This document shows, in pieces, positions 18,186 through 58,208 of a stretch of DNA of 64,000 nt. The position numbers were made by a program, and so were the translations under genes. The first letter of the stretch is position 1. Each line of letters starts with the position of its first letter. The notes under the pieces were generated by a model. That model saw only the letters and a list, made by a program, of their open reading frames with translations, did no database searches and was not told the origin of the DNA. Source of the DNA: Streptomyces sp. A012304 (GTDB lineage Bacteria; Actinomycetota; Actinomycetes; Streptomycetales; Streptomycetaceae); the NCBI RefSeq assembly GCF_026008495.1, contig NZ_BQUN01000012.1:1-64000 (forward strand), read 5' to 3'.

Positions 18186-18213
18186 AGGCACCGGCTGGAC
18201 AGTGCCGGTGCCT
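18186..18213. promoter_or_regulatory. inverted repeat upstream of the monooxygenase/reductase operon
   Basis: AGGCACCGGC (18186-18195) and GCCGGTGCCT (18204-18213) are perfect 10-base inverted repeats with an 8-base spacer. They lie 45 to 72 bases upstream of the monooxygenase ATG, where an operator would be expected. The AraC protein at 15408 is a possible ligand; this is inference. Confidence 0.4.
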
Positions 18214-18259
18214 GTCCGTGCAGCGGAACTTGCCCGTCAGTGCCCATTCGTGGCTGCCG

Positions 18260-18795
18260 CTTACCGGTCTGCGATATACCGAACGCCTGCTCGACCACCG
18301 GGCCTTGCTGGACACCCAGGTGACCCTGCGCGGCTGCCTCGCGGCACCGCCGGTCTGACGCCCCGTCCGCACGATCTGCCCGCCCGGACCGTCGCCGAGA
18401 CGGTCACCCTCGTCGAGGCCGACGACTGGCCGGCCGACGACAGGGTCGCGGCCGACCTCCGCCAGGCGGCACCGTCGGCCGAGGCCGCCGCGCTGCGGGC
18501 CGCGCTGGAGGTGGTCGGCCTGTCGGGGCTGCCGCTGGACACGGCGGTGGGCCCGGGCGGGCGGCTGCTGTCGCAGGGGCAGCGCAGGCGCCTCGCCACG
18601 GCACGGGCCGTACTGCGGCGTCCTCGGGTCCTGCTGCTCGACGAGCCCGTGGCCGGCCTGGACCGCCCCACCGCCGAGACGCTCCTGGCCGCGCTGTGCC
18701 GGGCGCTGCCGGAGACCGCGCTGGTGATCGCCCTGTAGGACCAGGACCTCGGTCTGCTGGACGGTGCGCCCGCCAGGGTCGTCCGGCTGTCAGGC
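18260..18795 (+). pseudogene. cydC-like ABC transporter remnant
   Basis: One frame reads [20 protein letters not shown], like the membrane domain of CydC-type exporters. Another frame then gives the ATPase end: ABC signature [19 protein letters not shown], Walker [13 protein letters not shown], then LVIAL followed by TAG at 18736-18738 where HDQD would be expected (the next codons read DQDLGLL). Walker A is missing. The change of frame, the deletion and the nonsense codon mark a dead fragment. It overlaps the 3' end of the hydrolase at 18790 by a few bases. Confidence 0.7.
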
Positions 18796-38483: not shown

Positions 38484-39752
38484 GTGCAGACCACGCCGCT
38501 CAGCCCCGAGGATCCGGCACAGATCGGCGGCTTTGAGCTGCTGGGCCGGATCGGCCAGGGCGGCATGGGACAGGTGTACCTGGGCGAGTCTCCAGGCGGT
38601 GAGCCGGCCGCGGTGAAGATCATCAAGCCGTCGGTCGTCGATTCGACCGCCCGGCTCCGCTTCGCGCAGGAGATCGAGATCCTGAAGACGGTCTGGGGCG
38701 CGCGGATCGCGCAGCTCCTCGACGCGGACGCGGAGGCGGAACAGCCCTGGCTGGCAACGGAGTACGTGGAGGGTCCGGACCTCGGCAAGCATGTGGTGAC
38801 CCATGGCCCGCTGCCCGCGCTCCTCGTCCTGTCCCTCGGCGCTACCCTTGCCGAAGGCCTGGGTTATGTGCACAAGCAGGGACTGCTGCACCGGGACCTG
38901 AAGCCCGCGAACATCCTGCTCGGCCCTAACGGCCCCAAGATCATCGACTTCGGCCTCGCGGTTTTCGCCGAGTCGAGCGCTACCCTCACCGCCGCCAACA
39001 CGGTCGTCGGCACCCCATCGTGCATGCCGCCCGAGCAGGCCAACGGTGTGAAGCCGCTGACGAGCGCCGTCGACGTGTACGCACTGGGTACGGTTCTCCT
39101 GTTCGCCGCGACGGGCCACCTGCCGTACCACGCGAACAACATCCACGTGCTGTTTCACATGGTGACCGATCCGACGACCGCCCCCGATCTGACGGGAGCG
39201 CCAACCGAGCTGGTCCCCCTCCTGACGGCCATGCTGTCCCACCACCCTCAGGACCGGCCCACGATCACCGAGGTCGTCCAGCAGTGCCGTGGCCTGGTCG
39301 AGGCGCAAGGGCTGAAGCTCGCGCAGGCACGCCGGCGTCTCACCACCTACACGGCCGCGCCCCGTCAGGACTTCCCGACGCTGCTACCGGCGCCGCCGGA
39401 AAGCGCCCTTCCTGCTCCCGTCCCTGCTATGTCCGACCCGGCAGCCACGCCGCGTCATGACGAACCGTCGACCGTACCCACGGTCGTGGACGGGCCCGCT
39501 CCGGATACCCAGCCCACCATGCATCTCGCCGCGCCACAGCAGACGGCACAGGCCGAGCCACCCGCTCAATCGGAGCCCACGGCCCCGGTGCCTCCGAACG
39601 CGGAGCACCAGCAGAGCGCTCCGAGCGAGGACGTGCCACGGCGGCCTCGCCCCACCGGTCGGACCCCGGCTCGTTCCCTGCGCCATTCCGCCCAGGCCCG
39701 CCGCACCGCCCAGCAGCTGCGCGAGGCGTACGCGGCGCGCGCCGCGTTCTGA
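38484..39752 (+). CDS. soluble serine/threonine protein kinase
   Basis: A 422-residue Hanks-type kinase. The Gly-rich loop is GRIGQGGMGQVYLG (21-34), the ATP Lys is Lys45, the catalytic HRDLKPAN is at 136-143 and DFG at 155-157; the kinase domain ends near residue 270. The remaining 150 residues are Pro/Ala-rich and basic at the end. No membrane helix or PASTA domain is seen, so it is cytosolic. GTG 38484 is used. It precedes the SNF2 helicase by 208 bases on the same strand; a 10-base direct repeat GGTCTGCCCC (39819, 39897) lies between. The position suggests a regulatory or effector role in the defence island, but a separate house kinase cannot be excluded. Confidence 0.9.
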   Translation: MQTTPLSPEDPAQIGGFELLGRIGQGGMGQVYLGESPGGEPAAVKIIKPSVVDSTARLRFAQEIEILKTVWGARIAQLLDADAEAEQPWLATEYVEGPDLGKHVVTHGPLPALLVLSLGATLAEGLGYVHKQGLLHRDLKPANILLGPNGPKIIDFGLAVFAESSATLTAANTVVGTPSCMPPEQANGVKPLTSAVDVYALGTVLLFAATGHLPYHANNIHVLFHMVTDPTTAPDLTGAPTELVPLLTAMLSHHPQDRPTITEVVQQCRGLVEAQGLKLAQARRRLTTYTAAPRQDFPTLLPAPPESALPAPVPAMSDPAATPRHDEPSTVPTVVDGPAPDTQPTMHLAAPQQTAQAEPPAQSEPTAPVPPNAEHQQSAPSEDVPRRPRPTGRTPARSLRHSAQARRTAQQLREAYAARAAF

Positions 39753-39960
39753 CCACATCCCGCGCACCGCTCCAGGTGCCTCCCCCGGCACGCCCCCACC
39801 GCGCACCATTAACCTGCGGGTCTGCCCCGGTGAAGGTGGTTCACGCGCTTTACCGCCCATACGGCACAGTGGAGCGGTACAACAGCGTGAGTGGCAGGTC
39901 TGCCCCAGCCGGGAGTCGGCCGCGACAACAGCACAGCATGACGGACACGGGAGGCAGCGG

Positions 39961-42873
39961 GTGACCGCCCAGCAGAGCAGCACCGCACCGGTGGACCCTC
40001 GCCCCAACGGGGAGGACCAGTTCCCGGCAGGCGCACAGGTCTTCGTGCGCGACGAGGTGTGGCTCGTGCGGAACTCCGTACGCACCGAGCACGACGGCGC
40101 GAAGGTCGATGTCGTCGGCGTGTCCGACTTCGTACGGGACCAGGAAGCCGTGTTCTTCACGGGCCTGGACACGATCGAGCTGATCGACCCCCGCCGTACG
40201 AAGCTGGTCCGAGACGAGTCGTCGAACTTCCGCCGTTCCCGTCTCTTCCTGGAGGCGGTCCTGCGCAAGACCGCGCTCCCCCAGTCCGAGCGCCGGCTGG
40301 CCCTCGCCGACTCGTTCCTCCTCGACTCCCTCCCCTACCAGCGCCGCCCCGCCGAGCTGGCCCTGTCGGGCCGCAACCTGCGCCCGCGGCTGCTGATCGC
40401 CGACGTGGTGGGGCTCGGCAAGACCCTGGAGATCGGTCTGACGCTGGCCGAGCTGATCCGTCGGGGCCGCGGTGAGCGCATCCTGGTGGTCACCCCGCAG
40501 CACGTCCTGGAGCAGTTCCAGCACGAGCTGTGGACCCGGTTCGCGATCCCTCTCGTACGGCTGGACTCGGTCGGCATCGAGCGGATCCAGCGGGAGATCC
40601 CGGCGGGCCGGAACCCGTTCACGTACTTCAAGCGGGTCATCGTCTCGATCGACACCCTGAAGAACACCGACCAGTACAAGCACCACCTGGAGCGCATCAA
40701 CTGGGACGCGGTCGTCATCGACGAGTCGCACAACCTGATCAACCGCGGCTCCCTGCGCAACCAGCTCGCGCAGATCCTCGCCCCGCGCACGGACGCCCTG
40801 ATCCTGGCCTCGGCGACCCCGCACAACGGTGACGCGAAGTCGTTCGCGGAGCTGATCGGCCTCCTCGACCCGGCGGCGATCCGTGATCCGGAGCACTACC
40901 GCGCCGAGGACATCGAGCACCTCTTCATCCGCCGTACGAAGATCAGCCCCGAGGTCCGCGAGCAGATGAAGGGCCAGTGGGCGGACCGGGGCCCCTCGCA
41001 GTCGGTGCGGTGTGCGGCGACACCCGCCGAGGAGAAGATCTTCGAGGAGCTGGCGGCCGTCTGGCTCCCCGGAGAGAACGGCACCTCCGTGAGCGGCGTA
41101 CCCCTCTTCCCGTACACGCTGCTCAAGTCGTTCCTGTCCTCGCACGCCGCCCTGAAGGCGACGGTCAGCGCACGTATCAAGACGCTGGAGAAGAAGGACG
41201 AACCAACGGCGACCCGCGCCGAACTCGCCGCGCTGCGCACGCTCCAGGAACTGGTGGAGCCGCTGACGGAGGCGGACTCGGCGAAGTTCGCGGCGTTGGT
41301 CGAGCAGCTGAAGGCGATCGGTGTCGGCCCGAAGTCGGACGCGCGGGTGGTGGTCTTCTCCGAGCGGGTGCAGACCCTGGAGTGGCTGCGTACGGTGCTG
41401 CCGGCCGCGCTCGGTTTCCGGGGTCGGGCGGCCGAGGAGTCGACGCGGGTGATGCACGGCGGACTGTCGGACGAGCAGCAGATGCAGTGTGTGGAGGACT
41501 TCGGCCTGGCGGACGCGCCGGTACGCGTCCTGCTGACCGGCGATGTGGCGTCCGAGGGCGTCAACCTGCACCGCCAGTGCCACCAGCTGATCCACTACGA
41601 CGTGCCGTGGTCGCTCATCCGCATCGAGCAGCGCAACGGCCGTATCGACCGGTACGGGCAGGCGCACCAGCCGCAGTTCCGCGCGCTGATCCTCACCAGT
41701 GAGGTGGAGGGCGCCAAGGATGACACGGTGGTGGCGGAGCGCCTGCTGGACCGCGAGGACCAGGCACACCGGGCGCTGGGCACGGCCGAGGCGGTGACGG
41801 GCCTGTACCGGGCGGAGGCCGAGGAGAAGTCCCTCATCCAGGATCTGCTGCGCGGCCGTACGGTGGACGAGTCGCTGGACGCGCACCGGGCGGAGGCCGA
41901 GGCGGACGCGGCCATGGACGACTTCCTGGCGGACTTCTTCGGTTCGGTGGGTGACGCCGGACCGGGCGCGGAGAACGCCGATCCACAGAACACCGAAGGA
42001 AAGGGCGCCGGCACGTCCGCACCGGGCAACGCGGCGGTACCCCGCCTGTTCACGTCGACCGCCGAGTTCCTGGACGAGGCGCTGAGCGAGGTGTTCCCCG
42101 ACGCGACCACCAGCCTGGACCTGCACCGAGACATCGAGTCGGGCCTGCTGTCCTTCCGCCCGCCCACCGACCTGGTGCACCGCCTCAAGGCGCTCCCGCT
42201 GGACTACGTACGCGAACAGCGCCTGCGCGAGCGGCTGTTGGTGACCTTCAACCGCCGGCTAGCCGAGCACTCCCTCAAGCGGGCCCGCGAGTCGTCCACG
42301 TCCAGCTGGCCGGAGATCTCGCTGCTCACGGATCTGCATCCGGTGGTGGAGTGGCTCACCGACAAGGTCCTGGTACGCCTGGGCCGGCAGGAGGCGCTGA
42401 TCATCACGGCGGACGTGCCCGAGCCCACGTACCTCGTGCAGGGCGTCTACTCCAACGCGCTGGGCCGTCCGACCGTCGTCAAGTGGATGGGCGTGACGCG
42501 GGGCGGCACGGTCGAGGACGACATGGTGGGGCTGCTGCGCCGCTCCGGGGTCGGCCCGACCATGGCCAACCCGATGCGCCACAGCGAACCGGCGACGGCG
42601 CTGGAGGCCGGCATCCCCGGCGCACTGGCCGCCGCCGAGCAATTCCTCGACCGGCACCGCGACGCCTGGGACGAGCCGCTGCGCAAGCCAATCGACGACT
42701 ACAAGGCCCGCCTGGGCGACTGGGAGCAGCCCACCCTCGCCGGTGAGCGGACGAAGAAGTCCCTCGCCTCGCTCGCGGACTCGCTACTGACCACCGGCCG
42801 CCCTCTGATGCGGGTCCTCGCCGTCCTGGTCCCCGACCCGGAAGCGCCCGCGCGTCCGCCATCCACGGCCTGA
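39961..42873 (+). CDS. SNF2-family helicase, DrmD-like
   Basis: A 970-residue superfamily 2 ATPase of the SNF2/HepA class. Walker A is ADVVGLGKTLE near 147-157, the DESH box (motif II) is at 254-257, and motif III is LASATPHNGD. The C-terminal helicase half holds VVVFSERVQTLEWL, ASEGVNLHRQCHQLIHYD and the arginine-finger motif IEQRNGRIDRYGQ. A long C-terminal extension follows. It matches the plan of DrmD (COG0553) of class 1 DISARM, which translocates on DNA with a methyltransferase partner. GTG 39961 follows GGGAGGCAGCG. It lies 83 bases before the methyltransferase gene, consistent with one operon. Confidence 0.9.
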   Translation: MTAQQSSTAPVDPRPNGEDQFPAGAQVFVRDEVWLVRNSVRTEHDGAKVDVVGVSDFVRDQEAVFFTGLDTIELIDPRRTKLVRDESSNFRRSRLFLEAVLRKTALPQSERRLALADSFLLDSLPYQRRPAELALSGRNLRPRLLIADVVGLGKTLEIGLTLAELIRRGRGERILVVTPQHVLEQFQHELWTRFAIPLVRLDSVGIERIQREIPAGRNPFTYFKRVIVSIDTLKNTDQYKHHLERINWDAVVIDESHNLINRGSLRNQLAQILAPRTDALILASATPHNGDAKSFAELIGLLDPAAIRDPEHYRAEDIEHLFIRRTKISPEVREQMKGQWADRGPSQSVRCAATPAEEKIFEELAAVWLPGENGTSVSGVPLFPYTLLKSFLSSHAALKATVSARIKTLEKKDEPTATRAELAALRTLQELVEPLTEADSAKFAALVEQLKAIGVGPKSDARVVVFSERVQTLEWLRTVLPAALGFRGRAAEESTRVMHGGLSDEQQMQCVEDFGLADAPVRVLLTGDVASEGVNLHRQCHQLIHYDVPWSLIRIEQRNGRIDRYGQAHQPQFRALILTSEVEGAKDDTVVAERLLDREDQAHRALGTAEAVTGLYRAEAEEKSLIQDLLRGRTVDESLDAHRAEAEADAAMDDFLADFFGSVGDAGPGAENADPQNTEGKGAGTSAPGNAAVPRLFTSTAEFLDEALSEVFPDATTSLDLHRDIESGLLSFRPPTDLVHRLKALPLDYVREQRLRERLLVTFNRRLAEHSLKRARESSTSSWPEISLLTDLHPVVEWLTDKVLVRLGRQEALIITADVPEPTYLVQGVYSNALGRPTVVKWMGVTRGGTVEDDMVGLLRRSGVGPTMANPMRHSEPATALEAGIPGALAAAEQFLDRHRDAWDEPLRKPIDDYKARLGDWEQPTLAGERTKKSLASLADSLLTTGRPLMRVLAVLVPDPEAPARPPSTA

Positions 42874-42956
42874 GCCCACACCCGCCCACGGCCCGGCCCG
42901 CTGCCCCGTCGCCCGCCAGACCTCCCGACCTGAGATTCCCTGAGAAGAGACCGGAC

Positions 42957-45900
42957 ATGACGTACGACTCCCTGGTCAACCGAGGAGACTACTTCTCGGC
43001 GCACTACCTCGCCGAGGTGCTGCCCAAGGACCTCAAGTCGGGCCTGCTGGCCGCCTGGAAGCAGCGCGAGGACGAGGCGAGGGCAGAGGCCGAGCGGGCG
43101 GCCACGACGGGAACCGACGGAACGGCCGAAGCGGTCCCGGGAGAACCGGACGCCGACGCCCTGCCGGTCACCCCGCGCGCGGGCCTGCGTGAACTGCGCC
43201 GCCACTACTTCCGGGCCCGTTCCTCCTTCGCCCTCCCCGAGGACGACGAGGACGGCACGGCGGCCGCCCAGGACACCGAGGACGACTCGGCGACGTACGA
43301 CTCCCCCGCCTGGTGCGAGCGGGTCCGCGCCCTGAACGCGGAGGTCCTGCGGGCGCTCGGCTACGACGCCAAGCCGCGCACGATGACGGTCACGCGCGCC
43401 GACCAGCCGTACGAGGTCCCGGTCGCGCACGCCGAGAAGGGCCTGGTAGCGGTCGACTGCGGCTGGGCCGCCGAACCGGACGCCGCCCTCGACCCGGAGG
43501 GGCCCGGCCGCCTCCTGGAGCCGGTACCGCTGGACGGCCGCAACACCGTGCCGACGGGCTCGAAGCTCGCCTCGTTCCTCTTCGCCTGCGAGGACGCGCC
43601 CCGGTACGTGCTGCTGCTGGTCGGCGGGGTCGTCGTCCTCGCGGACCGGATGGTGTGGGGCGAGGGCCGCTACCTCGCGGTCTCGCTCGACGCGGCCCTC
43701 CAGCGCAACGACACCAAGGCGGGCGGCGAACTCGACACGATCGCCGCCCTGTTCGGCGCGGACTCGCTGCGCACGCCGGAAGAGGGCGGCGAGAACCCCC
43801 TCGCGGAACTCGTCGGCAAGTCCACCAAGCACGCGGTGGGTGTCTCCAGCGAGCTGCGCGACGGTCTGCGGCTGAGCGTGGAGCTGATCGCGGGCGAGGT
43901 CCTGGCCCGGCTGCGCGAGCAGGGCGTACGCCCCGAGGACATCGGCGAACTGTCCGACCTCGGCAAGCAGTTGACTCGCGAGTCGCTCCGCTACCTCTAC
44001 CGCGTCCTGTTCCTCCTCTACGCGGAGGCCCGCCCCGAGCTGGGCATCCTGCCCGCCGACTATCCCGAGTACCAGCAGGGCTACGGCCTCGGCCGCCTCG
44101 GCGAACTGATCGCCGAGCGTGACCTGGTCGACGAGAAGTCCCGGCAGGGCACGTATCTGTACGAGTCCCTGGACCTGCTCTTCCGCAAGGTGCAGGAGGG
44201 CTACCGCTCGCGGCGGACGCACGGCCCCGCAGGGGCGGAAGCGGCCGGTGTGGAGGCCGCCCCCAAGGCCAGCGAGGACGTGGGCCTGCGTTTCGAGCCG
44301 CTGCATTCCAAGCTGTTCGAACCGGAGTCGATCCGGCTGATCGGCCTCGGCACGATCCCGCACCCCCACGACGACACCGACGACGATGACGACGAGGCCG
44401 GCCTTGAGGGCTCGGGCGGCGTCCTGGACACCCGGCTGCGGAACGCCACCCTCTACAAGGTGCTGCGCCTGCTGATGATCACGCGCGGCAAGAAGGGCGA
44501 GCGCGGCGGCTTCATCTCGTACGCCCAGCTCGGCATCAACCAGCTCGGGGCCGTATACGAGGGCCTGATGTCGTACAGCGGGTTCATCGCGGGCGACGAG
44601 GAGCTGTACGAGGTCGCGAAGAACGGCGACCCAAAGGACGGTTCCTGGCTCATCCCGAAGTCGAAGGTCGACGACTATCCGGGGAACGTGTTCGTACACC
44701 GCCGCGACGAGGAGACCGGCGAGGACGTCCGCGTCAGGTACGCCCCCGGCTCGTTCGTCTACCGCCTGTCCGGCCGCGACCGCCAGACGTCAGCCTCGTA
44801 CTACACCCCCGAGTCCCTCACCAAGGTCACGGTCCAACTGGCCCTCCAGCACCGCCTGGACCAGGACGGTACGACGACCGAGGCGCGCGAGCTGCTCGAC
44901 TGGAAGATCTGCGAGCCGGCGCTCGGGTCCGGGGCCTTCCTCAACGAGGCCATCAACCAGGTCGCGGCGGAGTACCTGCGTCGCCGCCAGGAGGAGCTGG
45001 GCACGCCGATCGACACGGAGAAGTACGCCGTCGAGTTCCAGAAGGCGAAGGCGTACGTCGCCCTGCACAACTCCTACGGCGTCGACCTCAACGAGACGGC
45101 CGTGGAGCTGGCGGAGGTGTCGCTGTGGCTCAACACCATGCACCCCGGCATGGAGGCCCCGTGGTTCGGCCTGCACCTGCGGCGCGGCAACTCGCTGATC
45201 GGCGGCCGACGTGAGGTCTACCCGCCGGAGAAGCTGAAGAAGGCCGCCTGGCTGGGAACGACGCCGGAACGCTTCCCGCTGACGGAGGCGGCGAACGGCC
45301 TCCCGGTGACGGTGACCGAGCGCACCACCCGAAGCGGCTCGGTGCAGCGGGTCACGGAAAACGCCGTCCACCACTTCCTCCTCCCCGCGAAGGAGTGGGG
45401 CGCGGTCGCCGCCGAGAAGGAGGCGAAGGCACTGGCCCCGGAGGCGGCGCGGGCGCTGGGCAACTGGCGCAAGATGATCACACGGACGCCAACTGCCAAG
45501 CAGGCGGAACGTCTTCAGGCGGCAGCCCGGCGCGTGGAGTTCCTGTGGGGGCTGGTTGTACGGCGCCTGGAGATCTCAGAGCGGGACATCTCGCGGCGGA
45601 TCGACGTGTGGGGCGCGGAGGACGGGTGGCTGCGGTCGCCTGAGGTCGCGGTGCAGCGGGACAAGGTCGTCGCTGATTTGACGGCTCCGGACACTCCCTA
45701 CTGGCGCCTGAAGACGCTGATGGACGCGTGGTGCGCGCTGTGGTTCTGGCCGGTGCAGGAGGCTGCGCTGCTGGACGGTACGGCGGCGGTGTACGAGCGG
45801 GGGGCTGAGGAACTTCCCTCGGGTGCTGTGGCGGAGGGGCTGCGGGCTGCGGACGAGTCCGGGGTGCTGATGTCCTGGGAGACGGAGGATCTGTTCGGCG

Positions 45901-48185
45901 AGATCACGGGGGGCGGCGAGCTGACGGCGGCCTCGGTGGAGCGCCGGCGCGCGGGGCGGCGTAAGGAGGCCATCGGGGGTACGCGCAAGCGGGCGGTGGT
46001 TCCGCTGGCGGGGCTGGACGACTGGCTGGAGTTCGCGGAGGCGTTGGTTGGCACGGAGGATGTGCCAGCGGACTCGCTGGTGGCGGAGTTCGGGTCGCTG
46101 GCTGAGCTGGAGCCTTATGAGGATGCGCTGCCGGATTTGATGGGCATGGAGCATTTTCAGCAGCTGGAGCTGCGGTTCCCTTGGGCGGGGGTTGCGGGGG
46201 ATGTGGCGCGGGCGCAGGGGTTCTTCCATTGGGAGTTGGACTTTGCGCAGGTGTTTGCCAATGGTGGATATGACCTGCAGGTGGGGAATCCTCCTTGGGT
46301 CCAACCCAAGTGGCACGAGGACTTGGTACTGGCTGAAGTTGACCCATGGTTTGCACTCGCAGATAAGCCCAGCACCGCAGAGTGGCGCACCCGAAAAGAG
46401 AAAACCCTATCAAGCAGGCATCAGAAATATTTCCTGAGGGAATTTTCCTCTACCACAGGCACCGGGAGATTCTTGGGATCTACCGAACATTACCCACTCC
46501 TAGAAGGTACGCAGCCCGATCTGTACCGCTGCTTCATGAGCAGAGTATGGGTAAACAGCACCCGTAATGGATCCTCAGGACTAATCCACCCGGATACTCA
46601 CTTCAATGGAAATCTAGCCACAGCGCTACGCTCCTCGGCCTACCGACGCCTACGCATTCACGCACACTTCTCAAACCTGCGGGCCATTTTTACCGAAATC
46701 CGCGTCACCCGGCAATTTAGCGTCAACATTTACGGCCGAGAGCAGGAAATTTCTTTCGTTCATGCAAGTTGGATTTTTGAGCCATCCACACTGATGCAGT
46801 CGTTCGAGCATGACGGAAGCGGAGACGCCCCAGGGATGCGCTACGCTGGAACCTGGGATACGCGACCACATCGCTCAAGACTGATTCTGGTAAACCAGCA
46901 AACACTTGACAGTTGGCACAGCCTGACAAGCAGTGAAGTTACCAGAAAGGACGCGACGCCTCTCATCTACCCAATCTCGAGCAGCGAACAAGGTGCCATT
47001 CAAAGCCTCGCGAGCTCCTTTCACCTTAGTTCCCACTCACCCAAGATCAGCTCTGGGTATAACGAGAAATCAGCAAAAGATGAGGGAATCATCAGGCGTG
47101 GCCACAGTAGCCACGACACCTGGAGAGAGGCTATCCTTCGGGGCCCCCACTTCATGGTAAGCGGCCTCTTCTCCAAAGAATCACCGGACATGGGGAGGGC
47201 TGGTAAATTCATCGACCTAACCTCTCTGCCTGCGGATTATATTCCAGCAACCGACTATCTTCGCGCTGCCAGCGTGGAGCGCTTCATTCAGAAGCAAGAT
47301 CTATGGGATGGCCGCCCGTACACGGAGTATTATCGAGCAGCCTGGAGGAAGATGATCCCATTCGACACTGAACGGAGTCTTTTTCCTGCCATAATTCCGC
47401 CAGGCCCATCCCACATTGATGCAGTTATTAGTATGGCACTCGAAACCCGCGAGCTGACTGCCCTTACTGTAGGTTTTTGGTCATCCCTACCCCTGGATTA
47501 CATGCTTCGGATTTCAGGAAAAGGGAACTTGCATCCGGCTGACGCAATTGACATGCCAGCCCCAACTCTTCCGCATCCATTGGCACCCCCAGCCCTACTG
47601 CGCACCCTTCGCCTTAATTGCCTGACGAACGCATACAGTCCCATTTGGAAAGAGCTCTTCAGTCGCACCCGGCCCAGCGGTGAGGATTGGGCCTACGACG
47701 CCTGGCCAAACCTCAAGCCGCTCACCGGGCACCTCAAACCGACCTGGGAATATGGCACTCCGCTCCGGACCGATTGCGAGCGTCGTGCTGCATTGGTCGA
47801 GTTGGATGCCCTCGTCTCCGTATGGCTTGGCATCACTGCCGATCAACTCGTCGCGATTTATAAGTCACGCTACCCTGTATTGTCCGACTATGAGGCCGAG
47901 ATGTATTTCGACGCCAACGGTCGGAAGATTGCGCGCAATCACAACACCCACGGCTACGGGCAGGCCAAGGACGCCTACCCCGCCCTTCTAGCTCACCTCG
48001 AATCCCCTGGCACCACTCCACCCCCCGAGGGATACGAACCTCCCTTCTACAAAGCAGACCGCGAAGCGGAGATGCGAGGCGCTCACGCGTACTTCCAAGC
48101 ACGGCTAGATGCCGAGATTGCCGCAGGGCGGTGGACTCCGCCCGAGCCAGCGGACGGCGGGCGTGAGGTGTCGGTGGATGTCTGA
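42957..48185 (+). CDS. large N6-adenine DNA methyltransferase, Eco57I / DrmMI type
   Basis: A 1742-residue methyltransferase (COG1002-like). The SAM motif I EPALGSGAF is at 653-661 and the catalytic NPPW at 1111-1114, a gamma-type amino-methyltransferase order with an unusually long insertion between. The N-terminal 600 residues (RGDYFSAHYLAEVLP onward) resemble PglX/DrmMI-type proteins and lack an obvious nuclease motif. The part after NPPW (about 46300-47990) has about 50-55 percent GC in the stretches I counted, against about 70 percent before, with rare codons; it is where the target-recognition domain should be. It probably marks self DNA while the helicase and partners act on unmodified DNA; that role is inferred from DISARM and BREX. 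Confidence 0.9.
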   Translation: MTYDSLVNRGDYFSAHYLAEVLPKDLKSGLLAAWKQREDEARAEAERAATTGTDGTAEAVPGEPDADALPVTPRAGLRELRRHYFRARSSFALPEDDEDGTAAAQDTEDDSATYDSPAWCERVRALNAEVLRALGYDAKPRTMTVTRADQPYEVPVAHAEKGLVAVDCGWAAEPDAALDPEGPGRLLEPVPLDGRNTVPTGSKLASFLFACEDAPRYVLLLVGGVVVLADRMVWGEGRYLAVSLDAALQRNDTKAGGELDTIAALFGADSLRTPEEGGENPLAELVGKSTKHAVGVSSELRDGLRLSVELIAGEVLARLREQGVRPEDIGELSDLGKQLTRESLRYLYRVLFLLYAEARPELGILPADYPEYQQGYGLGRLGELIAERDLVDEKSRQGTYLYESLDLLFRKVQEGYRSRRTHGPAGAEAAGVEAAPKASEDVGLRFEPLHSKLFEPESIRLIGLGTIPHPHDDTDDDDDEAGLEGSGGVLDTRLRNATLYKVLRLLMITRGKKGERGGFISYAQLGINQLGAVYEGLMSYSGFIAGDEELYEVAKNGDPKDGSWLIPKSKVDDYPGNVFVHRRDEETGEDVRVRYAPGSFVYRLSGRDRQTSASYYTPESLTKVTVQLALQHRLDQDGTTTEARELLDWKICEPALGSGAFLNEAINQVAAEYLRRRQEELGTPIDTEKYAVEFQKAKAYVALHNSYGVDLNETAVELAEVSLWLNTMHPGMEAPWFGLHLRRGNSLIGGRREVYPPEKLKKAAWLGTTPERFPLTEAANGLPVTVTERTTRSGSVQRVTENAVHHFLLPAKEWGAVAAEKEAKALAPEAARALGNWRKMITRTPTAKQAERLQAAARRVEFLWGLVVRRLEISERDISRRIDVWGAEDGWLRSPEVAVQRDKVVADLTAPDTPYWRLKTLMDAWCALWFWPVQEAALLDGTAAVYERGAEELPSGAVAEGLRAADESGVLMSWETEDLFGEITGGGELTAASVERRRAGRRKEAIGGTRKRAVVPLAGLDDWLEFAEALVGTEDVPADSLVAEFGSLAELEPYEDALPDLMGMEHFQQLELRFPWAGVAGDVARAQGFFHWELDFAQVFANGGYDLQVGNPPWVQPKWHEDLVLAEVDPWFALADKPSTAEWRTRKEKTLSSRHQKYFLREFSSTTGTGRFLGSTEHYPLLEGTQPDLYRCFMSRVWVNSTRNGSSGLIHPDTHFNGNLATALRSSAYRRLRIHAHFSNLRAIFTEIRVTRQFSVNIYGREQEISFVHASWIFEPSTLMQSFEHDGSGDAPGMRYAGTWDTRPHRSRLILVNQQTLDSWHSLTSSEVTRKDATPLIYPISSSEQGAIQSLASSFHLSSHSPKISSGYNEKSAKDEGIIRRGHSSHDTWREAILRGPHFMVSGLFSKESPDMGRAGKFIDLTSLPADYIPATDYLRAASVERFIQKQDLWDGRPYTEYYRAAWRKMIPFDTERSLFPAIIPPGPSHIDAVISMALETRELTALTVGFWSSLPLDYMLRISGKGNLHPADAIDMPAPTLPHPLAPPALLRTLRLNCLTNAYSPIWKELFSRTRPSGEDWAYDAWPNLKPLTGHLKPTWEYGTPLRTDCERRAALVELDALVSVWLGITADQLVAIYKSRYPVLSDYEAEMYFDANGRKIARNHNTHGYGQAKDAYPALLAHLESPGTTPPPEGYEPPFYKADREAEMRGAHAYFQARLDAEIAAGRWTPPEPADGGREVSVDV

Positions 48186-48258: not shown

Positions 48259-49485
48259 ATGCCTGGACAGTTGCTCGAACTGCACGTGGAGAACTTCCGC
48301 AGCCTGCGGGACGTGACGATCCCGTTAGGTCCGCTGACGGTCCTCGTCGGTGCGAACGGTGTCGGCAAGTCGAACGTCCTCAAGGTTTTCGACCTGCTCG
48401 CCGACATCATCCGTACCGACCTCGAACCCGCCCTCGAATCCCGGGGTGGGTTCGACCAGGTCGCGTTCTGGGGCGGGCCCAAACCGCCGACCACCCTCCG
48501 CATCCGGCTCAAGGCCACCTGGACCACCCACTCCAGCCCCAACGCCCCCGACGAATACGACCTCAAGGTCCGACGCTACTCGGCGCCCGGCAACAAAGAC
48601 AGCGGCCGTTACCGCCTCACCCGCAGCGAGAGCTTCCAGTTCAAGCGAACGCGGGGGCGAGGCCGCCGCATCACCGTGTCGGGCGAGCGCGCCACAGTGG
48701 TCGATACTCGGCCGAGCAGCGGTCTTGAGGACAGCAGCGAGTTCGGTATCCAGCGACTCAGCAGCGGTCTGTCCACCCTCCCCCGCTTGACCAGTACCGA
48801 GGGTGGAACCGAGGTGGCCCTAGTGGCGCATCAACTCTCCTCGTTCCGCGTGTTCGACGTGAACGTCGACGCGGCTCGCCGTCCTTCCCGCGTCGACCAC
48901 GGCGACCTGTCATCCGACGCGGACAACTTGGCCGCCTTCTTGTACACGCTCCACACGGGAGACGACGACCTCTGGAACCGGCTGGTCGACGACGCCCGTT
49001 CCGTCCTTCCGCAACTGCTGGACATCGAATTCGTCCACGTCGGAGGCCGAGCAGATCAGGTCACTGTCATCCTTCGTGAGCGCGGGCTGCGGCAGCCCAC
49101 CCCCCTCGCCGACGCCTCTTACGGGACCGTCCGCCTCCTCGGACTCCTGGCCCTGCTCCACGACCCCACGCCTCCCGCACTCACGTGTGTCGAGGAGATC
49201 GATCACGGTCTTCACCCCCAGGCGCTGAGGTTGATCGTCGAGCGCTTGAGGGAAGCCAGCGAACGGACCCAGTTCATCGTCGCCACGCACTCCCCCGCCC
49301 TGACCGACCGACTTCTGCCCGGAGAGATTGTGATCTGCGAGCGGGACGACGAGGGAGCCTCGCTCATCCCCGCGATCAGCACGGCCGACGTGAGTGCGAT
49401 CGTCGAGGAGAGCGGAGACCTGCCGCTCGGTGAGCTGTGGTTCTCAGGTGTTCTCGGAGGCGACCTGACGGGAGACGAACTGTAG
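48259..49485 (+). CDS. AAA family ATPase (AAA_21 / OLD-like, no TOPRIM)
   Basis: A 408-residue SMC/ABC-like ATPase. It begins LELHVENFRSLRDVTIPLGP, with Walker A GANGVGKS at 31-38. The ABC signature region is ADASYGTVRLLGLLALL, Walker B CVEEIDHGLHPQAL and the switch His ATHSPALTDRLL. Such ATPases are sensors in OLD, Gabija and PARIS systems. This chain ends soon after the ATPase with no TOPRIM. Its stop shares one base with the GTG of the next gene, so the two are translationally coupled. It follows the methyltransferase by 73 bases on the same strand. Confidence 0.9.
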   Translation: MPGQLLELHVENFRSLRDVTIPLGPLTVLVGANGVGKSNVLKVFDLLADIIRTDLEPALESRGGFDQVAFWGGPKPPTTLRIRLKATWTTHSSPNAPDEYDLKVRRYSAPGNKDSGRYRLTRSESFQFKRTRGRGRRITVSGERATVVDTRPSSGLEDSSEFGIQRLSSGLSTLPRLTSTEGGTEVALVAHQLSSFRVFDVNVDAARRPSRVDHGDLSSDADNLAAFLYTLHTGDDDLWNRLVDDARSVLPQLLDIEFVHVGGRADQVTVILRERGLRQPTPLADASYGTVRLLGLLALLHDPTPPALTCVEEIDHGLHPQALRLIVERLREASERTQFIVATHSPALTDRLLPGEIVICERDDEGASLIPAISTADVSAIVEESGDLPLGELWFSGVLGGDLTGDEL

Positions 49486-50159
49486 TGGCCAGGAGCAGAG
49501 GCCCCCAGGGGCGTGGCGTCATCGTGCTGGCCGGCGAGGACTCCAACGACTGCCGGATCGTCGCCGAGATCATCAAGCAGCACCATCCGGACCTGGGCAG
49601 CGCCCGCCTGGTCGAGATCAGCGACAAGACCCGCCTCAAGACGGCCTCCGGGCCCGACCTCGCGGCCCGCGTCCGCACGATCATCGGCAAAGCGAAGGGC
49701 CGCGCGCTCCGAGCGAAGGGTCCGCTCGTCGGCCTGGTGATCCACGAGGACCTGGACGGCTACACGGACGCCGAGTACGCCCGTGTCCGTGCGAACGTCG
49801 CCGGGGCACTCTCCCGCGAGAGCCCCTGCAACTCGGCGTTGGCGCTTGCCGCTTGGGAGTCGGAGGCCTGGCTCTTACTCTTCCCGGACGCCTTCCCGGC
49901 CGTCCGGCCCAACTGGAAGGTTCCCGCGCAGCTCCAAGGCCGCGACACCGGAACCATCAAGAGCCCCAAGGAAGACCTGAAGCGCAAGCTCGGTTCCCCG
50001 GCGTTCCGGGAGTGCGACGGGCCCAAGGTCGCCGAGCAGGCCCGATCGCTTGGCCTACTAGCCTCGGGCCCGACCGGCACCAACCGCTCCTACAAGGACT
50101 TCGTCCAAGAACTCGGCCGGTGGTCCGCAGCTTCCGTCCCAAGTCCGCGCCGCAGGTGA
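49485..50159 (+). CDS. TOPRIM-like partner protein (DUF4276-like)
   Basis: A 224-residue protein. The early strand GVIVLAGEDSNDCRI contains Glu18 and the later strand LVGLVIHEDLDGY contains Asp89 and Asp91. The Glu...Asp-x-Asp pattern and small size fit a TOPRIM-fold nuclease of the DUF4276 kind. A conserved-looking WESEAWLLLFPDA follows. The GTG start overlaps the ATPase stop. ATPase plus separate TOPRIM is the layout of PARIS (AriA/AriB) and of split OLD-like pairs, so this is a likely effector nuclease. The assignment rests on motif reading only. Confidence 0.7.
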   Translation: MARSRGPQGRGVIVLAGEDSNDCRIVAEIIKQHHPDLGSARLVEISDKTRLKTASGPDLAARVRTIIGKAKGRALRAKGPLVGLVIHEDLDGYTDAEYARVRANVAGALSRESPCNSALALAAWESEAWLLLFPDAFPAVRPNWKVPAQLQGRDTGTIKSPKEDLKRKLGSPAFRECDGPKVAEQARSLGLLASGPTGTNRSYKDFVQELGRWSAASVPSPRRR

Positions 50160-50184: not shown

Positions 50185-50397
50185 TCAGTTCATCTGGTCT
50201 ACGGCGTACCCAACAAACATTGCCCAGGCATCCGGGCCAACAGCCAGTCCGGGATGGTCCCTGTCCTTGGAGTCCCGCACATGGATCGTCCGCGTCGAGG
50301 TGGCCACCTCGACGCAATCGCCGCCCTCAGCCCCGCTGTAACTGCTCTTGAACCAGGTCAGAGACGAGTCCGCCTTGCTCTTGGGTCGGGGCGTCAT
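50185..50397 (-). CDS. DUF397 domain protein
   Basis: A 70-residue DUF397 protein with the signature WFKSSYSGAEGGDCVEVA and HVRDSKD. These small proteins are encoded next to XRE-DUF5753 regulators in streptomycetes and behave as their partners in an antitoxin/toxin-like relation. The start overlaps the stop of the regulator gene by four bases, confirming the pair. Confidence 0.93.
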   Translation of the reverse strand: MTPRPKSKADSSLTWFKSSYSGAEGGDCVEVATSTRTIHVRDSKDRDHPGLAVGPDAWAMFVGYAVDQMN

Positions 50398-51296
50398 GGT
50401 TCTCCCAACAACTTCTCGATGTAGGACAACGACTCGCGGGGAGCGAGTGCTTGCGCTCGGATAATCCCATAGCGCGCGGCCAGCACGCGCACCTCTTCTC
50501 GGTCGGTGACCAGCGTGCTTCGCCCCTGCGTCTCCAAGTAGCCAACCTGCTCCCCGCCCTTGCGCATGTAGAGCGTGAAGCCACCGTCCACGCCTGCATT
50601 GTCTTCTCGGTCCAACGGCATGATCTGGACTTCGACGTTGCGCTGTTGACCGATGAGAAGGATCTGCTCCAACTGCCCCCGCACGACATCCGGACCGCCG
50701 AGTCGGCGAAGCAACACTGCCTCCTCCATCACGAAGCTGAATAGTGGTCTGTCGACTCTGGCGAAGACCTCTTGTCGTGCCAGCCGAGCTGCCACTCGCT
50801 GCTCGATTACCTCTTCAGTCAGAAGCGGCCTCCGCATCCGCAGGAGGGCTCGCATGTATTCCTCGGTCTGCAAGAGCCCTTTGACCACGTGGGTGTCGTA
50901 TGCGTGCAGCTCAACCGCCTCCGCCTCCAACCGAGCCGCATCCCGAAAGAACGCGGGATACTGCGCTCGCGCCACCTCCTCCTTCATCTCCTGGAGAACC
51001 CCGCCCGCGTCCAGCAGGCCGTCCGCCACATCGATGAACCGAGGCGGCGGTACCCGCCTCCCCTGTTCGAACGCCGCGATGGTGGACGCCGAGTAGCCGG
51101 TCCGCGAACCGAACTCGGCCCGCTCCAGCCCCGCCCGCAGCCGGAAGCGTTTCAACTGCCGTCCGAACACCCGGAGGATGCCCGAGTCCGGCTCGGGCGG
51201 CCCCGGTGACTCCGTCCCGACGTCCGAGCCCACGCCCGCAGCCGCGGTTCCGTCCGGCTCCCCTGCCAGTTCGCTCACCCGCCCGCTCACCTCCAC
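50394..51296 (-). CDS. XRE-family regulator with DUF5753 (Scr1-type)
   Basis: A 300-residue regulator. A roughly 40-residue leader is followed by the XRE HTH (FGRQLKRFRLRAGLERAEFG, then YSASTIAAFEQGRR) and the DUF5753 domain (LHAYDTHVVKGLLQTEEYMR; QVGYLETQGRSTLV). It pairs with the DUF397 gene. The unit is transcribed against the defence genes on either side. Confidence 0.93.
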   Translation of the reverse strand: MEVSGRVSELAGEPDGTAAAGVGSDVGTESPGPPEPDSGILRVFGRQLKRFRLRAGLERAEFGSRTGYSASTIAAFEQGRRVPPPRFIDVADGLLDAGGVLQEMKEEVARAQYPAFFRDAARLEAEAVELHAYDTHVVKGLLQTEEYMRALLRMRRPLLTEEVIEQRVAARLARQEVFARVDRPLFSFVMEEAVLLRRLGGPDVVRGQLEQILLIGQQRNVEVQIMPLDREDNAGVDGGFTLYMRKGGEQVGYLETQGRSTLVTDREEVRVLAARYGIIRAQALAPRESLSYIEKLLGEP

Positions 51297-55801: not shown

Positions 55802-57028
55802 TTGGTCGGCAGCGCTCCCGTACCTGAGCCGGAACAGTCGTCACCGGACTCCGCGTCCACAGTGTCCTCGACACCGCGGAACGACGAACCGCTCGTCGAG
55901 CTGACCGACACCGGAGTCAGTGCCGGCATCGAAGCGGAGGACCTTGGTCCGAGCCACCGGGCGCCATTCGACCCGGAGCTGATCGACGTTTATCCGCGCG
56001 CGACGACCATCGATCTGATGCTTCAGCGCCTCAAACGAGGACTCATCGATCTACAACCCGACTTCCAGCGACGCTCCGGCATCTGGAACGAGACGGCCCA
56101 GAGCAGGCTGATCGAGTCTCTTCTCCTGCGCATCGCTCTGCCCACGATCTATGTGGCGGAGGAGGCCGACGACTCCTGGACCGTCGTGGACGGGGTACAG
56201 CGGCTCACCACGATCGTCCGCTTCGTCAAGCCGGAGGCCGCCGGGCTGGAACCGCTGATGCTGCGGAACCTGGAATACCTCGATTACAACGGCAAGACCT
56301 TCGAGGACCTGCCGGGGCGCATGCAGACCCGCATCCTGGAGACCGAGCTGTCCTTGCTGCTCATCCGAAAGGGCACGCCCGAAGAGGCCCGGTTCAACAT
56401 CTTCACGCGGATCAACACCGGAGGACTGCCTCTCTCCCAGCAGGAGCTGCGGCACGCGCTCATTCCAGGCCCGGCGCGCGACCTCCTGGCGAGGCTGGCG
56501 GAGAGCCCGTTCTTCCTGGACGCGACCGCGCGCAGCGTCTCCCCCAGCCGCATGGCGGAGCGTGAACTGTGCCTGCGCTTCCTCGCGTTCTTGATGATTC
56601 GACCCGGGCGGTACGTCACACAGGACTTCGACGGCTTTCTCCGCGCGGCCATGCATCAGATCAACACGCTCAGCACCTCGGAACTGACCGACCTGGAGAG
56701 GATTTTCCAGCGCGCCATGTTCAGCAGCATCGCCGTCTTCGGTGAGCAGGCGTTCCGTAAGCAGTTCAAGGATTCGACCCGCCGCTATCCCATCAACAAG
56801 GCGCTCTTCGAAGTACAGGCCGTGACCCTGGCCCGGTGCACTTCATCAGAGATCGCCATTCTCAGTCAGCAAGCGGAAACCGTCGAGGAAAATTTCAGAG
56901 TCCTGATGGACAACCCGGCGTTCTACGACGCCATCTCCTCCGGCACCGGCGATGCCGACAAGGTCAACTACCGCTTCCAGTCCATGAAGGACCTGTTCCG
57001 CGAGGTGTTGGAATCCGCTGATGCTTGA
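55802..57028 (+). CDS. DUF262 domain protein (GmrSD/ParB-like N-terminal family)
   Basis: A 408-residue DUF262 protein. The conserved blocks are LQPDFQRRSGIWNETAQSRL near 80-100, the nucleotide-binding DGVQRLTTI near 123-131, and RINTGGLPLSQQELRHA near 200-216. DUF262 is the N-terminal domain of GmrS-type modification-dependent restriction factors and resembles ParB/Srx NTP-binding folds; no GmrD nuclease motif is present here. TTG 55802 is chosen for the GGAGGGG before it. Its end overlaps the next gene by eight bases, so it is translated together with the ATPase. Confidence 0.88.
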   Translation: MVGSAPVPEPEQSSPDSASTVSSTPRNDEPLVELTDTGVSAGIEAEDLGPSHRAPFDPELIDVYPRATTIDLMLQRLKRGLIDLQPDFQRRSGIWNETAQSRLIESLLLRIALPTIYVAEEADDSWTVVDGVQRLTTIVRFVKPEAAGLEPLMLRNLEYLDYNGKTFEDLPGRMQTRILETELSLLLIRKGTPEEARFNIFTRINTGGLPLSQQELRHALIPGPARDLLARLAESPFFLDATARSVSPSRMAERELCLRFLAFLMIRPGRYVTQDFDGFLRAAMHQINTLSTSELTDLERIFQRAMFSSIAVFGEQAFRKQFKDSTRRYPINKALFEVQAVTLARCTSSEIAILSQQAETVEENFRVLMDNPAFYDAISSGTGDADKVNYRFQSMKDLFREVLESADA

Positions 57029-58148
57029 GTCGCTCACTCTCACCAACTTCAAGGCGTTCGCCCACCAGGAACTGCGCCTGGCCCCCTTCACCCTGCTGAC
57101 CGGACTCAACTCCTCCGGCAAGAGTTCCGTACTCCAGTCCCTGGCGCTGCTGCGGCAGTCGTACGAGTCCGATGATCTCGACCCCTTCGGCGGCGGCGAG
57201 GGCGGACTGCTGCTCAACGAGGAGTTGGTACAGCTCGGCATCGGGCAGGACGTTCGGCACGAGTCGTACGACGAGACCGGTCCGCACATCACCCTCGCGG
57301 TACAAGGCGACGGTCACACCATGCGGTGGAGCGCCGTCTACGAGCGCGAGGCAGACCATCTCAAACTGCTGCCCGACGAGGACAGGGGCCGCCGCGAACC
57401 GCGCCATTACCTGCCGACCCTGTTCGGGCCCGGCTTCCAGTACCTGAAGGCCGACCGCGTCTCCCCTCAGGTCAGCTACCCGCGCTCGCACCACGCCGTG
57501 TCCACACGCGGCTTCCTCGGCGCGCACGGCGAGCACACCGTGAACTACCTGCGCGCCCACCAGGACGACCCCGTCGAGGCGTCAGCGCTCCTCGTCCCCG
57601 ACGCGGCGTCCCACACGCTGCTCGGGCAGACCGAAGCCTGGATGCAGAAGCTCTGTCCTGGAGTGAGACTGGAGGCGGCCGGCATCGACGGCACGGACAC
57701 AGTGAGGCTCAGCTACCGCTTCGGCTCGGGCGTCTCCCAGTCCAACCGCTATCGCCCCACGAATGTCGGCTTCGGACTCACGTACGTCCTGCCGATCGTC
57801 GTGGCCTGCCTGTCGGCCAAGCCTGGGACGCTGATCCTGCTGGAGAACCCGGAGGCGCACCTGCATCCGCAGGGCCAGACCTGGATGGCGTACCTGGCGA
57901 GCGCGGCGGCGGCGAGCGGGGCGCAGATCGTGATGGAGACGCACAGCGACCACGTACTCAACGGCCTGCGGCTACGGGTCAAGCAGGAGCTGCTGAGCGC
58001 CGACGCGACCGCCGTGCACTACTTCCGTCGCAAGGATCAGACCTCGGAGGTCGTCAGCCCGGTCATCGGGCCGGACGGGCGGCTCTCCGAGTGGCCCGAG
58101 GGCTTCTTCGACGAGTGGGAGAACTCCCTCGACCAACTGCTCGACTGA
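57021..58148 (+). CDS. AAA family ATPase with DUF3696-type C-terminus
   Basis: A 375-residue ABC-like ATPase. It begins LESLTLTNFKAFAHQELRLA, with Walker A GLNSSGKS at 28-35. The signature-side region is GFGLTYVLPIVVACLS, Walker B LILLENPEAHLHPQGQ and the switch ETHSDHVLNGLRL. The chain ends in WPEGFFDEWENSLDQLL, the DUF3696 end. DUF262 plus this ATPase is a recurrent pair in bacterial islands. It likely uses ATP to gate the DUF262 partner. Confidence 0.9.
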   Translation: MLESLTLTNFKAFAHQELRLAPFTLLTGLNSSGKSSVLQSLALLRQSYESDDLDPFGGGEGGLLLNEELVQLGIGQDVRHESYDETGPHITLAVQGDGHTMRWSAVYEREADHLKLLPDEDRGRREPRHYLPTLFGPGFQYLKADRVSPQVSYPRSHHAVSTRGFLGAHGEHTVNYLRAHQDDPVEASALLVPDAASHTLLGQTEAWMQKLCPGVRLEAAGIDGTDTVRLSYRFGSGVSQSNRYRPTNVGFGLTYVLPIVVACLSAKPGTLILLENPEAHLHPQGQTWMAYLASAAAASGAQIVMETHSDHVLNGLRLRVKQELLSADATAVHYFRRKDQTSEVVSPVIGPDGRLSEWPEGFFDEWENSLDQLLD

Positions 58149-58208
58149 GCTGCAGCACGAAGTCATTGAAGCGCCCCGGGGGGTCGGGGTGATCGGTGCA
58201 GAGCGAGA

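What the first reader, a model, noticed from the sequence alone, without database searches (positions are those of the whole stretch)
46260..47990. Low-GC mosaic segment in the methyltransferase C-terminus
Immediately after the NPPW motif GC falls from roughly 70 percent to about 50-55 percent (two 60-base lines counted: 30/60 at 46441-46500 and 32/60 at 46681-46740), with A/T-ending codons, then rises again near 48000. The location fits a target-recognition domain exchanged by recombination between strains or taxa.
Basis: seen in the sequence. Interest (0 to 1): 0.6.

Follow-up and report, generated by a model that had tools for sequence, protein, structure and literature searches.

The report
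Swappable DNA-recognition cassette in methyltransferase gene
A phage-defence-type DNA methyltransferase gene of a probable Streptomyces carries a 1.5-kb block that related strains exchange as a unit, probably to change which DNA sequence the enzyme reads, and the odd base composition of that block is shared by its sampled relatives rather than marking a recent foreign import.

Summary
Observation confirmed. GC falls from about 70% to 53-54% right after NPPW (46287-46298) and recovers gradually over about 47640-48100. The segment (about 46302-47760) is an exchanged cassette: the nearest orthologues are 95% and 93% identical over residues 1-1100 but 40% and 45% over 1115-1440, and among 22 close orthologues the two identities do not correlate (rho -0.03, 231 pairs). 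Synonymous sites are replaced too (third-base agreement 0.80 before, 0.31 inside). The predicted structure holds the second half of the methyltransferase fold plus an HsdS/PglX-like recognition domain. But low GC does not mark import into this strain: fourfold-site GC is lower inside in 69 of 69 sequences, and 30 HsdS recognition domains of the same genus average the same. A non-stationary model of cassettes that have relatives (not the window's orphan) suggests no drift towards host composition. Specificity exchange is known; less expected is a lasting composition step inside one gene, weaker in common alleles than in orphans (rho 0.66). Its cause is open.

The parts
42957..48185 (+). gene for a 1742-aa gamma-class adenine DNA methyltransferase with C-terminal recognition domain
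   Evidence: ORF; PADLOC REase_MTase_IIG PDLC03611 E 4.2e-290, DrmMI E 1.3e-46; Pfam Eco57I E 1.4e-12
42957..46298 (+). conserved scaffold part, residues 1-1114, ending with NPPW; high fourfold-site GC
   Evidence: 95%/93% identical to L032/L033 over residues 1-1100; GC4 of residues 1-1100 0.907 on average over 69 sequences
46287..46298 (+). NPPW motif (gamma-class motif IV; motif name recalled), the 5' edge of the exchanged cassette
   Evidence: residue 1111; invariant in 66 aligned sequences; DNA similarity to L032 ends at 46302
46302..47759 (+). exchanged low-GC cassette
   Evidence: no blastn similarity to L032 between 46302 and 47760; identity and synonymous tests; GC 0.537 for 46320-47759
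46299..47012 (+). cassette part 1: second half of the methyltransferase fold, residues 1115-1352
   Evidence: model residues about 504-764 align with methyltransferase domains
47013..47780 (+). cassette part 2: target-recognition domain, about residues 1353-1608
   Evidence: model residues 762-1019 align with HsdS-type recognition domains (7vru_C Z 9.6, rmsd 3.5, 164 aligned; 1yf2_A Z 8.0, rmsd 3.6, 158 aligned)
47781..48182 (+). C-terminal tail, the probable 3' anchor; fourfold-site GC partly recovered
   Evidence: GC4 0.73-0.79 per 20-residue bin in 23 close sequences; third-base agreement with L032 27/54 over residues 1601-1742
38484..39752 (+). Ser/Thr protein kinase, conserved upstream partner
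   Evidence: a kinase hit upstream in 62 of 63 homologous loci with enough flank; PADLOC mad6 E 3.3e-60
39985..42873 (+). SNF2-type helicase (39985 is my trim; the frame opens earlier and the start codon is uncertain)
   Evidence: DrmD-like E 1.8e-79; adjacent in 65 of 66 loci with enough flank
48259..49485 (+). HEC-01A-like AAA ATPase, a passenger
   Evidence: PADLOC E 2.2e-196; such a gene at 40% identity or more directly downstream in 2 of 65 homologous loci, L032 and L042
49488..50159 (+). HEC-01B-like protein, passenger
   Evidence: PADLOC E 2.8e-87
50394..51296 (-). XRE-type regulator (resembles the Sco1979 family), frequent 3' neighbour
   Evidence: NCBIfam NF058600 E 3.2e-34, 118 bits against a cut-off of 350; present in 37 of 65 loci

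Best explanation
The segment is a specificity cassette of a gamma-class adenine methyltransferase. Homologous recombination anchored in conserved DNA around NPPW and around residues 1601-1742 replaces the second half of the catalytic fold and the recognition domain in one piece, giving the enzyme a new target sequence while the scaffold and its kinase and helicase partners stay. Shown here: replacement of the block, and independence from the scaffold's history among close relatives. Predicted: the fold. Inferred: that the target sequence changes, and that recombination at the two anchors is the route. The low GC is a standing property of such cassettes, not a sign of recent import into this strain. 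My preferred but unproven reason is that the block rarely meets a homologous partner, so it escapes the GC-raising effect (biased gene conversion) that keeps the flanks GC-rich.
For: Identity 95%/93% outside and 40%/45% inside against L032/L033; over 231 pairs of 22 close sequences rho = -0.03 between scaffold and cassette identity; pairs go both ways, e.g. L036-L042 scaffold 0.75, cassette 0.79. Fourfold codons with the same residue share the third base in 510/636 outside and 21/67 inside for window-L032, so the block was replaced, not merely changed fast at protein level. Of 34 pairs with scaffold identity of 0.9 or more, 24 have cassette identity below 0.6. In 23 close sequences catalytic half and recognition domain vary together (rho 0.69) and neither with the scaffold (rho -0.09 to 0.04). 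AU tests: cassette data reject L045+L070 as sisters (p 2e-4; scaffold 94% identical), scaffold data reject the nine-member cassette group (p 4e-5). Fold: M.BseCI 7qw8_A Z 15.3 (rmsd 6.8, 325 aligned), PglX 8q56_A Z 14.0 (4.7, 372), HsdS 1yf2_A Z 8.0 (3.6, 158). GC4 lower inside in 69 of 69; HsdS domains 0.678 (30 loci) against 0.677 here; estimated equilibrium GC4 0.60 (0.54-0.75) inside, 0.93 outside.
Against: The AU test does not reject window+L032+L033 as a cassette clade (p 0.197; window+L032 p 0.336), since these cassettes are too diverged to place; the groups that were rejected were chosen after the trees were seen. Over all 69 sequences (2346 pairs) scaffold and cassette identities do correlate (rho 0.54), so exchange looks frequent only within large clades. 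No donor allele was found: best match 50%. No methylome shows a changed target. The equilibrium estimate comes from 19 triplets of cassettes with relatives, none of them the window's, uses a two-state model, and is biased low by about 0.07 in simulation (stationary 0.70 returned 0.63); in the six GC-poorest triplets 0.90 is 2.8 lnL units away and the best value lies at the grid edge of 0.30.
Confidence: 0.85

Rival explanations
1. The segment was recently imported from a lower-GC organism and has not yet adapted to the host composition.
For: GC 0.537 against 0.722 for the genome sample; orphan alleles tend to be the poorest in GC (rho 0.66), as expected if older alleles have adapted. The window cassette itself is an orphan and could not be tested.
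Against: Each of 69 sequences has the dip, though it is slight in a few such as L079 (0.93 to 0.92). The best relative of the window cassette core is 50% identical and in Streptomyces. 11 of 396 phylum genomes matched the cassette profile: the own genome, 3 of its genus, 4 strong hits elsewhere and 3 weak ones; the loci of the 4 strong outside hits have 65-69% GC. Plasmid matches listed reach 39.4% (15 of 30 records listed, all 30 under 60%); none in phages. Modelled substitution among sister cassettes does not head to 0.90 (delta lnL 14.7).
Confidence: 0.12
2. Nothing was exchanged: the C-terminal part simply evolves fast under diversifying selection and loses GC through weak constraint.
For: Cassette trees are poorly resolved and window+L032+L033 is not rejected as a clade (p 0.197).
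Against: Synonymous third bases are replaced too (0.80 outside, 0.31 inside for window-L032). Residues 951-1000 are at least as variable (mean pair identity 0.32) but keep GC4 0.85. Conserved columns inside the segment are also GC-poor (0.636 against 0.595 for variable ones).
Confidence: 0.03
3. Exchange is real, but the low GC reflects selection for AT-ending codons in this part of the mRNA (for example slow translation during folding of the recognition domain).
For: The dip is at a fixed place in the protein in the homologues, and HsdS domains share it.
Against: GC4 ranges from 0.50 to 0.92 between cassettes and tracks how common an allele is, which a fixed folding need would not predict. 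Not tested directly.
Confidence: 0.1

Closest known systems
TRD exchange / 'domain movement' in Type I S and Type III Mod genes of Helicobacter pylori (PMC3983042, passages seen; PMC3077401, listing only)
   Same: Recognition-domain sequences recombine between alleles through conserved flanking sequence, changing specificity
   Different: Here the unit also carries the catalytic half after NPPW, sits in a 1742-aa single-chain enzyme, and bears a composition step; movement between two domain positions within the gene was not sought
BREX PglX (PMC11341690, passages seen)
   Same: Gamma-class methyltransferase followed by an HsdS-like recognition domain; fold match Z 14.0, rmsd 4.7, 372 aligned
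   Different: No PglZ match in the genome; partners are a kinase and an SNF2 helicase; similarity to PglX models is only E 6e-5
DISARM class 1 DrmMI and DrmD (gene set recalled)
   Same: SNF2 helicase next to a large adenine methyltransferase; model hits DrmD E 1.8e-79, DrmMI E 1.3e-46
   Different: DrmD score 285.7 is under the NCBIfam cut-off of 610; no DrmB-type (MZB) hit in the cassette; a kinase is part of the conserved set
Type IIG restriction-modification enzymes such as MmeI and BpuSI
   Same: Best PADLOC model PDLC03611 (E 4.2e-290); fold match MmeI 5hr4_C Z 10.0 (rmsd 4.9, 324 aligned), BpuSI 3s1s Z 11.1 (rmsd 9.6, 359 aligned)
   Different: No nuclease domain recognised in residues 1-600; separate helicase and kinase

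Membership tests
Exchangeable target-recognition cassette (domain exchange) | conserved flanks with a middle whose history differs from theirs | tested here: met
   for the window's own trio the AU test alone is inconclusive (p 0.197)
Exchangeable target-recognition cassette (domain exchange) | the exchanged part contains the recognition domain | tested here: met
   predicted structure against HsdS, PglX, MmeI; domain-level Z 8.0-9.6 is moderate
Exchangeable target-recognition cassette (domain exchange) | exchange changes the methylated sequence | not testable with these tools
   needs methylomes
gamma-class adenine DNA methyltransferase | SAM-binding motif followed by NPP(W/Y/F) and C-terminal recognition domain (motif order recalled) | tested here: met
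   EPALGSG at residue 653 and NPPW at 1111; both invariant in 66 aligned sequences; fold
DISARM class 1 | DrmD above curated cut-off | tested here: not met
   285.7 bits against 610
DISARM class 1 | DrmB (DUF1998/MZB) in the same locus | tested here: not met
   two MZB hits in the genome: contig C91, and a DruE-like protein at C12:69155, about 21 kb downstream of the methyltransferase gene
BREX | PglZ present | tested here: not met
   0 of 1 (own genome) with PF08665; the search rang in 2 of 14 control genomes
Type IIG restriction-modification | N-terminal nuclease domain in the same chain | tested here: inconclusive
   no PDB match with E of 0.001 or less for residues 1-600
Type IIG restriction-modification | cleavage at a fixed distance from the methylated site | not testable with these tools
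   biochemical property

The most novel reading that the evidence does not exclude
Exchangeable recognition cassettes of high-GC actinomycetes sit at their own, lower GC equilibrium because they lack homologous partners and so escape GC-biased gene conversion. The boundary between homologous and non-homologous DNA inside a single gene would then be a natural experiment that shows what recombination adds to bacterial GC content, with expression, strand and chromosomal position held constant.
Probability: 0.3. Interest if true: 0.75.

Novelty: new variant of a known kind. Interest (0 to 1): 0.5.

Why it matters
A GC dip inside a gene is commonly read as foreign DNA. Here the dip is shared by the 69 sequences compared and by most HsdS recognition domains tested (14 of 17 below their HsdM), so for recognition domains it is a poor indicator of recent transfer, at least in this genus. 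It can instead help locate exchangeable specificity cassettes in high-GC genomes. The within-gene step also offers a direct test of why some bacterial genomes are GC-rich: mutation, selection on codons, or biased gene conversion. Finally, the recurrent kinase, SNF2 helicase and methyltransferase set is a candidate defence system for which three searches of open-licence papers gave me no description; I saw listings and passages of one of the papers, not all of them.

Tried and rejected
Recent import: looked for donors in the genus (66 of 392 genomes, own included, match the window's cassette core; most hits lie in frames of over 1200 aa whose scaffold part one search also found, exceptions being fragments in G375 and a weak hit in G075), in GTDB contigs (30 stretches matched a pattern, 4 confirmed, best 50%), in the phylum (11 of 396, own genome included), near relatives (16 of 150, own included), plasmids (30 records, all under 60% identity) and phages (none). 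No donor was found in these.

Parsimony count of substitution direction (inside 221 towards GC and 608 towards AT; outside 166 and 705) was set aside because it gave an equilibrium of 0.70 for the scaffold, whose actual value is 0.91; the likelihood version replaced it. In one search the outgroups are reused between triplets.

Fold of residues 1-600 (53 of 69 sequences in the alignment): no significant PDB match, so no nuclease claim is made. Sequence search of the PDB with the C-terminal profile: nothing at E 0.01.

First two versions of the HsdS control failed (script error after the synonymous table, reverse-strand loci not turned, then an error); only one search is used. In 3 of its 17 pairs the recognition domain is the richer one.

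Papers: PMC3983042, PMC11341690, PMC4450053, PMC10482375, PMC12839542, PMC12707154 and PMC3874165 were seen as search passages only. Searches aimed at a published statement that recognition domains are low in GC gave listings; I did not read those papers through, so absence is not shown. PMC12707154 says generally that restriction-modification genes differ in base composition from the host core genome, and PMC10482375 that in Actinobacteria systems with a low GC ratio are generally rare ones, which resembles the trend seen here.
Full report
WHAT IS THERE. The window lies on a contig of a 9.66-Mb genome. The genus is very probably Streptomyces: a same-genus genome, G131, has a contig 8 of the same length (361451) as a record titled Streptomyces sp. 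NRRL WC-3626, with the homologue at the same place. The gene at 42957-48185 codes for 1742 residues. Its best PADLOC model is a Type IIG restriction enzyme-methyltransferase (E 4.2e-290), with DrmMI further down, and Pfam finds the Eco57I methylase domain. NPPW is at residue 1111, window 46287.

THE OBSERVATION. GC drops from 0.698 to 0.53 in 500-bp windows. None of 197 windows of 1440 bp sampled from the same genome is as low as the segment's 0.537; the lowest has 0.546. Third codon positions give GC3 0.602 inside and 0.923 outside, delta lnL 131.7 against at most 8.2 in 100 shuffles scanned on a coarser grid.

EXCHANGE. Residues 1-1108 were searched in 392 genomes of the genus; 152 had a match, many of them weak. 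Homologous regions were fetched, plus four loci. 69 full-length sequences including the window were kept; L067, L084 and L094 were dropped for partial coverage, L053 and L054 left out as fragments, L069 as a duplicate of L050. L032 and L033 are 95% and 93% identical to the window over residues 1-1100, but 40% and 45% over 1115-1440. DNA similarity to L032 runs to 46302, stops, and resumes at 47760; to L033 it runs to 46375 and resumes at 47304 at 69% identity. Because L032 also shares the downstream HEC-01 genes at 86% and 90% protein identity, the replaced block is bounded on both sides by related DNA. Among 22 close sequences scaffold and cassette identities are uncorrelated (rho -0.03, 231 non-independent pairs). 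Of 34 pairs with scaffold identity of 0.9 or more, 24 have cassette identity below 0.6 and 3 have 0.85 or more. At fourfold codons that keep the residue, third bases agree in 510 of 636 outside and 21 of 67 inside for window-L032; this is replacement, not fast protein change.

AGAINST. Over all 69 sequences the correlation is 0.54 (2346 pairs), so exchange is frequent within large clades rather than unlimited. The window, L032 and L033 cassettes are too diverged for a tree to reject that they are sisters (AU p 0.197). The incongruence is significant for others: L045+L070 p 2e-4, and the nine-member cassette group against scaffold data p 4e-5; these groups were picked after the trees had been seen.

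WHAT THE CASSETTE CONTAINS. A model of residues 590-1742 (66 of the 69 sequences in the alignment; L058, L080 and L102 left out; mean pLDDT 78.3, about 77-97 in most blocks of the cassette) aligns with M.BseCI 7qw8_A (Z 15.3, rmsd 6.8, 325 aligned), CamA 7rfk_B (Z 14.1, 4.6, 345), PglX 8q56_A (Z 14.0, 4.7, 372), MmeI 5hr4_C (Z 10.0, 4.9, 324) and, for model residues about 764-1019, HsdS-type domains (7vru_C Z 9.6, 3.5, 164; 1yf2_A Z 8.0, 3.6, 158). So residues 1115-1352 complete the catalytic fold and about 1353-1608 are the recognition domain. The two parts vary together (rho 0.69) and neither follows the scaffold. That specificity changes with the cassette is inferred.

COMPOSITION. Fourfold-site GC (GC4) is 0.907 (sd 0.038) over residues 1-1100 and 0.677 (sd 0.111) over 1115-1440, lower in 69 of 69, though in a few such as L079 only slightly. 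Taken apart, the catalytic half has 0.679 and the recognition domain 0.668. Four homologues from outside the genus show the same direction, e.g. L148 0.88 before NPPW and 0.65 and 0.57 after it. The step in 23 close sequences falls at NPPW: 0.83, 0.71, 0.58 in successive 20-residue bins. It is not a by-product of protein divergence: residues 951-1000 have mean identity 0.32 and GC4 0.85, and conserved columns inside the cassette are also poor (0.636 against 0.595). As both parts share one mRNA, expression level cannot explain the step (inference). As a control, the best HsdS match in each of 30 genomes (72 of 150 genomes had one) gives recognition-domain GC4 0.678 (sd 0.114). In the 17 of 30 where HsdM was found alongside, HsdM has 0.864 and the recognition domain is lower in 14, higher in 3 (p 0.004). 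So the dip is common to recognition domains in this genus.

CAUSE OF THE DIP. Cassette GC4 rises with identity to the nearest sampled cassette (rho 0.66; 0 of 5000 within-clade permutations reach it), while scaffold GC4 shows no such relation to scaffold identity (rho -0.03). At cluster level rho is 0.53, 0.57 and 0.41 for clusters at 60, 70 and 75% identity (23, 34 and 42 clusters). There are exceptions: the singleton L089 has 0.89, the pair L072/L080 0.56, and of six clades with six or more members five are positive (three with p below 0.01) and one is -0.09. Both adaptation with age and biased gene conversion predict the trend. They differ on direction: a two-state non-stationary likelihood on 19 triplets gives equilibrium GC4 0.60 (0.54-0.75) for the cassette, excluding 0.90 by 14.7 lnL units, and 0.93 for the scaffold; simulations recover 0.93 for an adapting block but return 0.63 for a block stationary at 0.70. 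The triplets need relatives, so the window's orphan cassette is not among them, and the six GC-poorest triplets alone exclude 0.90 only by 2.8 units. This favours a separate, lower equilibrium over ongoing adaptation, without proving it. Its link to biased gene conversion, proposed for bacteria in PMC4450053 (passages seen), is my inference.

SETTING. Among the 68 other sequences, helicase and kinase are adjacent in 65 of 66 and 62 of 63 loci with enough flank; L034 is the exception for both. The XRE regulator follows in 37 of 65, a HEC-01A-like gene (40% identity or more, directly downstream) in 2 of 65. DISARM and BREX tests fail. How the set works is not shown. By analogy, the methyltransferase would mark the host and recognise unmarked DNA, the helicase would act on it, and the kinase would regulate.

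VERDICT. The finding is real and the exchange idea correct; the composition argument for it is not, because composition is a standing feature of the cassette class. Specificity exchange itself is known; the lasting composition step inside a gene is the part worth a specialist's time.

Noticed in passing
window 45500-46249: Strong G over C excess just before the cassette (GC skew +0.29 to +0.35; at fourfold sites (G-C)/(G+C) +0.83 for residues 1001-1100, and +0.35 or more in 13 of the 17 sequences tabulated). Cause unknown.
   Followed up: partly
window 38484-48185: Kinase, SNF2 helicase and methyltransferase form a conserved three-gene set (62 of 63 and 65 of 66 homologous loci) that does not pass as DISARM or BREX; candidate defence system.
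   Followed up: partly
L034 (G131:C13): The methyltransferase is 85% identical over the scaffold but no helicase or kinase hit lies upstream.
   Followed up: no
L034/L050 (G131) and L035/L048 (G338): Two genomes hold two copies of the methyltransferase, with cassettes from different 70% clusters.
   Followed up: no
window 48259-50159: HEC-01A/B-like pair between methyltransferase and XRE gene in the window and L032, a related pair in L042; a HEC-01A-like gene sits directly downstream in 2 of 65 other loci, though similar pairs lie further away in L039, L047 and L050.
   Followed up: partly
window 55802-59144 and contig C12 64019-73392 (L174): NsnA/B/C-like genes, then DruE-like and GajB-like proteins beyond the window: a defence island.
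   Followed up: partly
L053 and L054 (G142:C151 and C110): Methyltransferase residues 1-812 in one frame on C151 and 774-1730 on C110, and the helicase of L053 in two frames; broken gene or assembly fault.
   Followed up: no
plasmid records H7 and H9-H14: Escherichia coli plasmids carry distant relatives of the cassette (29-30% identity), annotated as SAM-dependent DNA methyltransferases or not at all.
   Followed up: no
L153 17281-18720 (G000:C12 about 117280): Another 1440-bp stretch of the same genome with GC 0.546, covered only by shorter frames such as one of 188 aa at 17720-18283.
   Followed up: no
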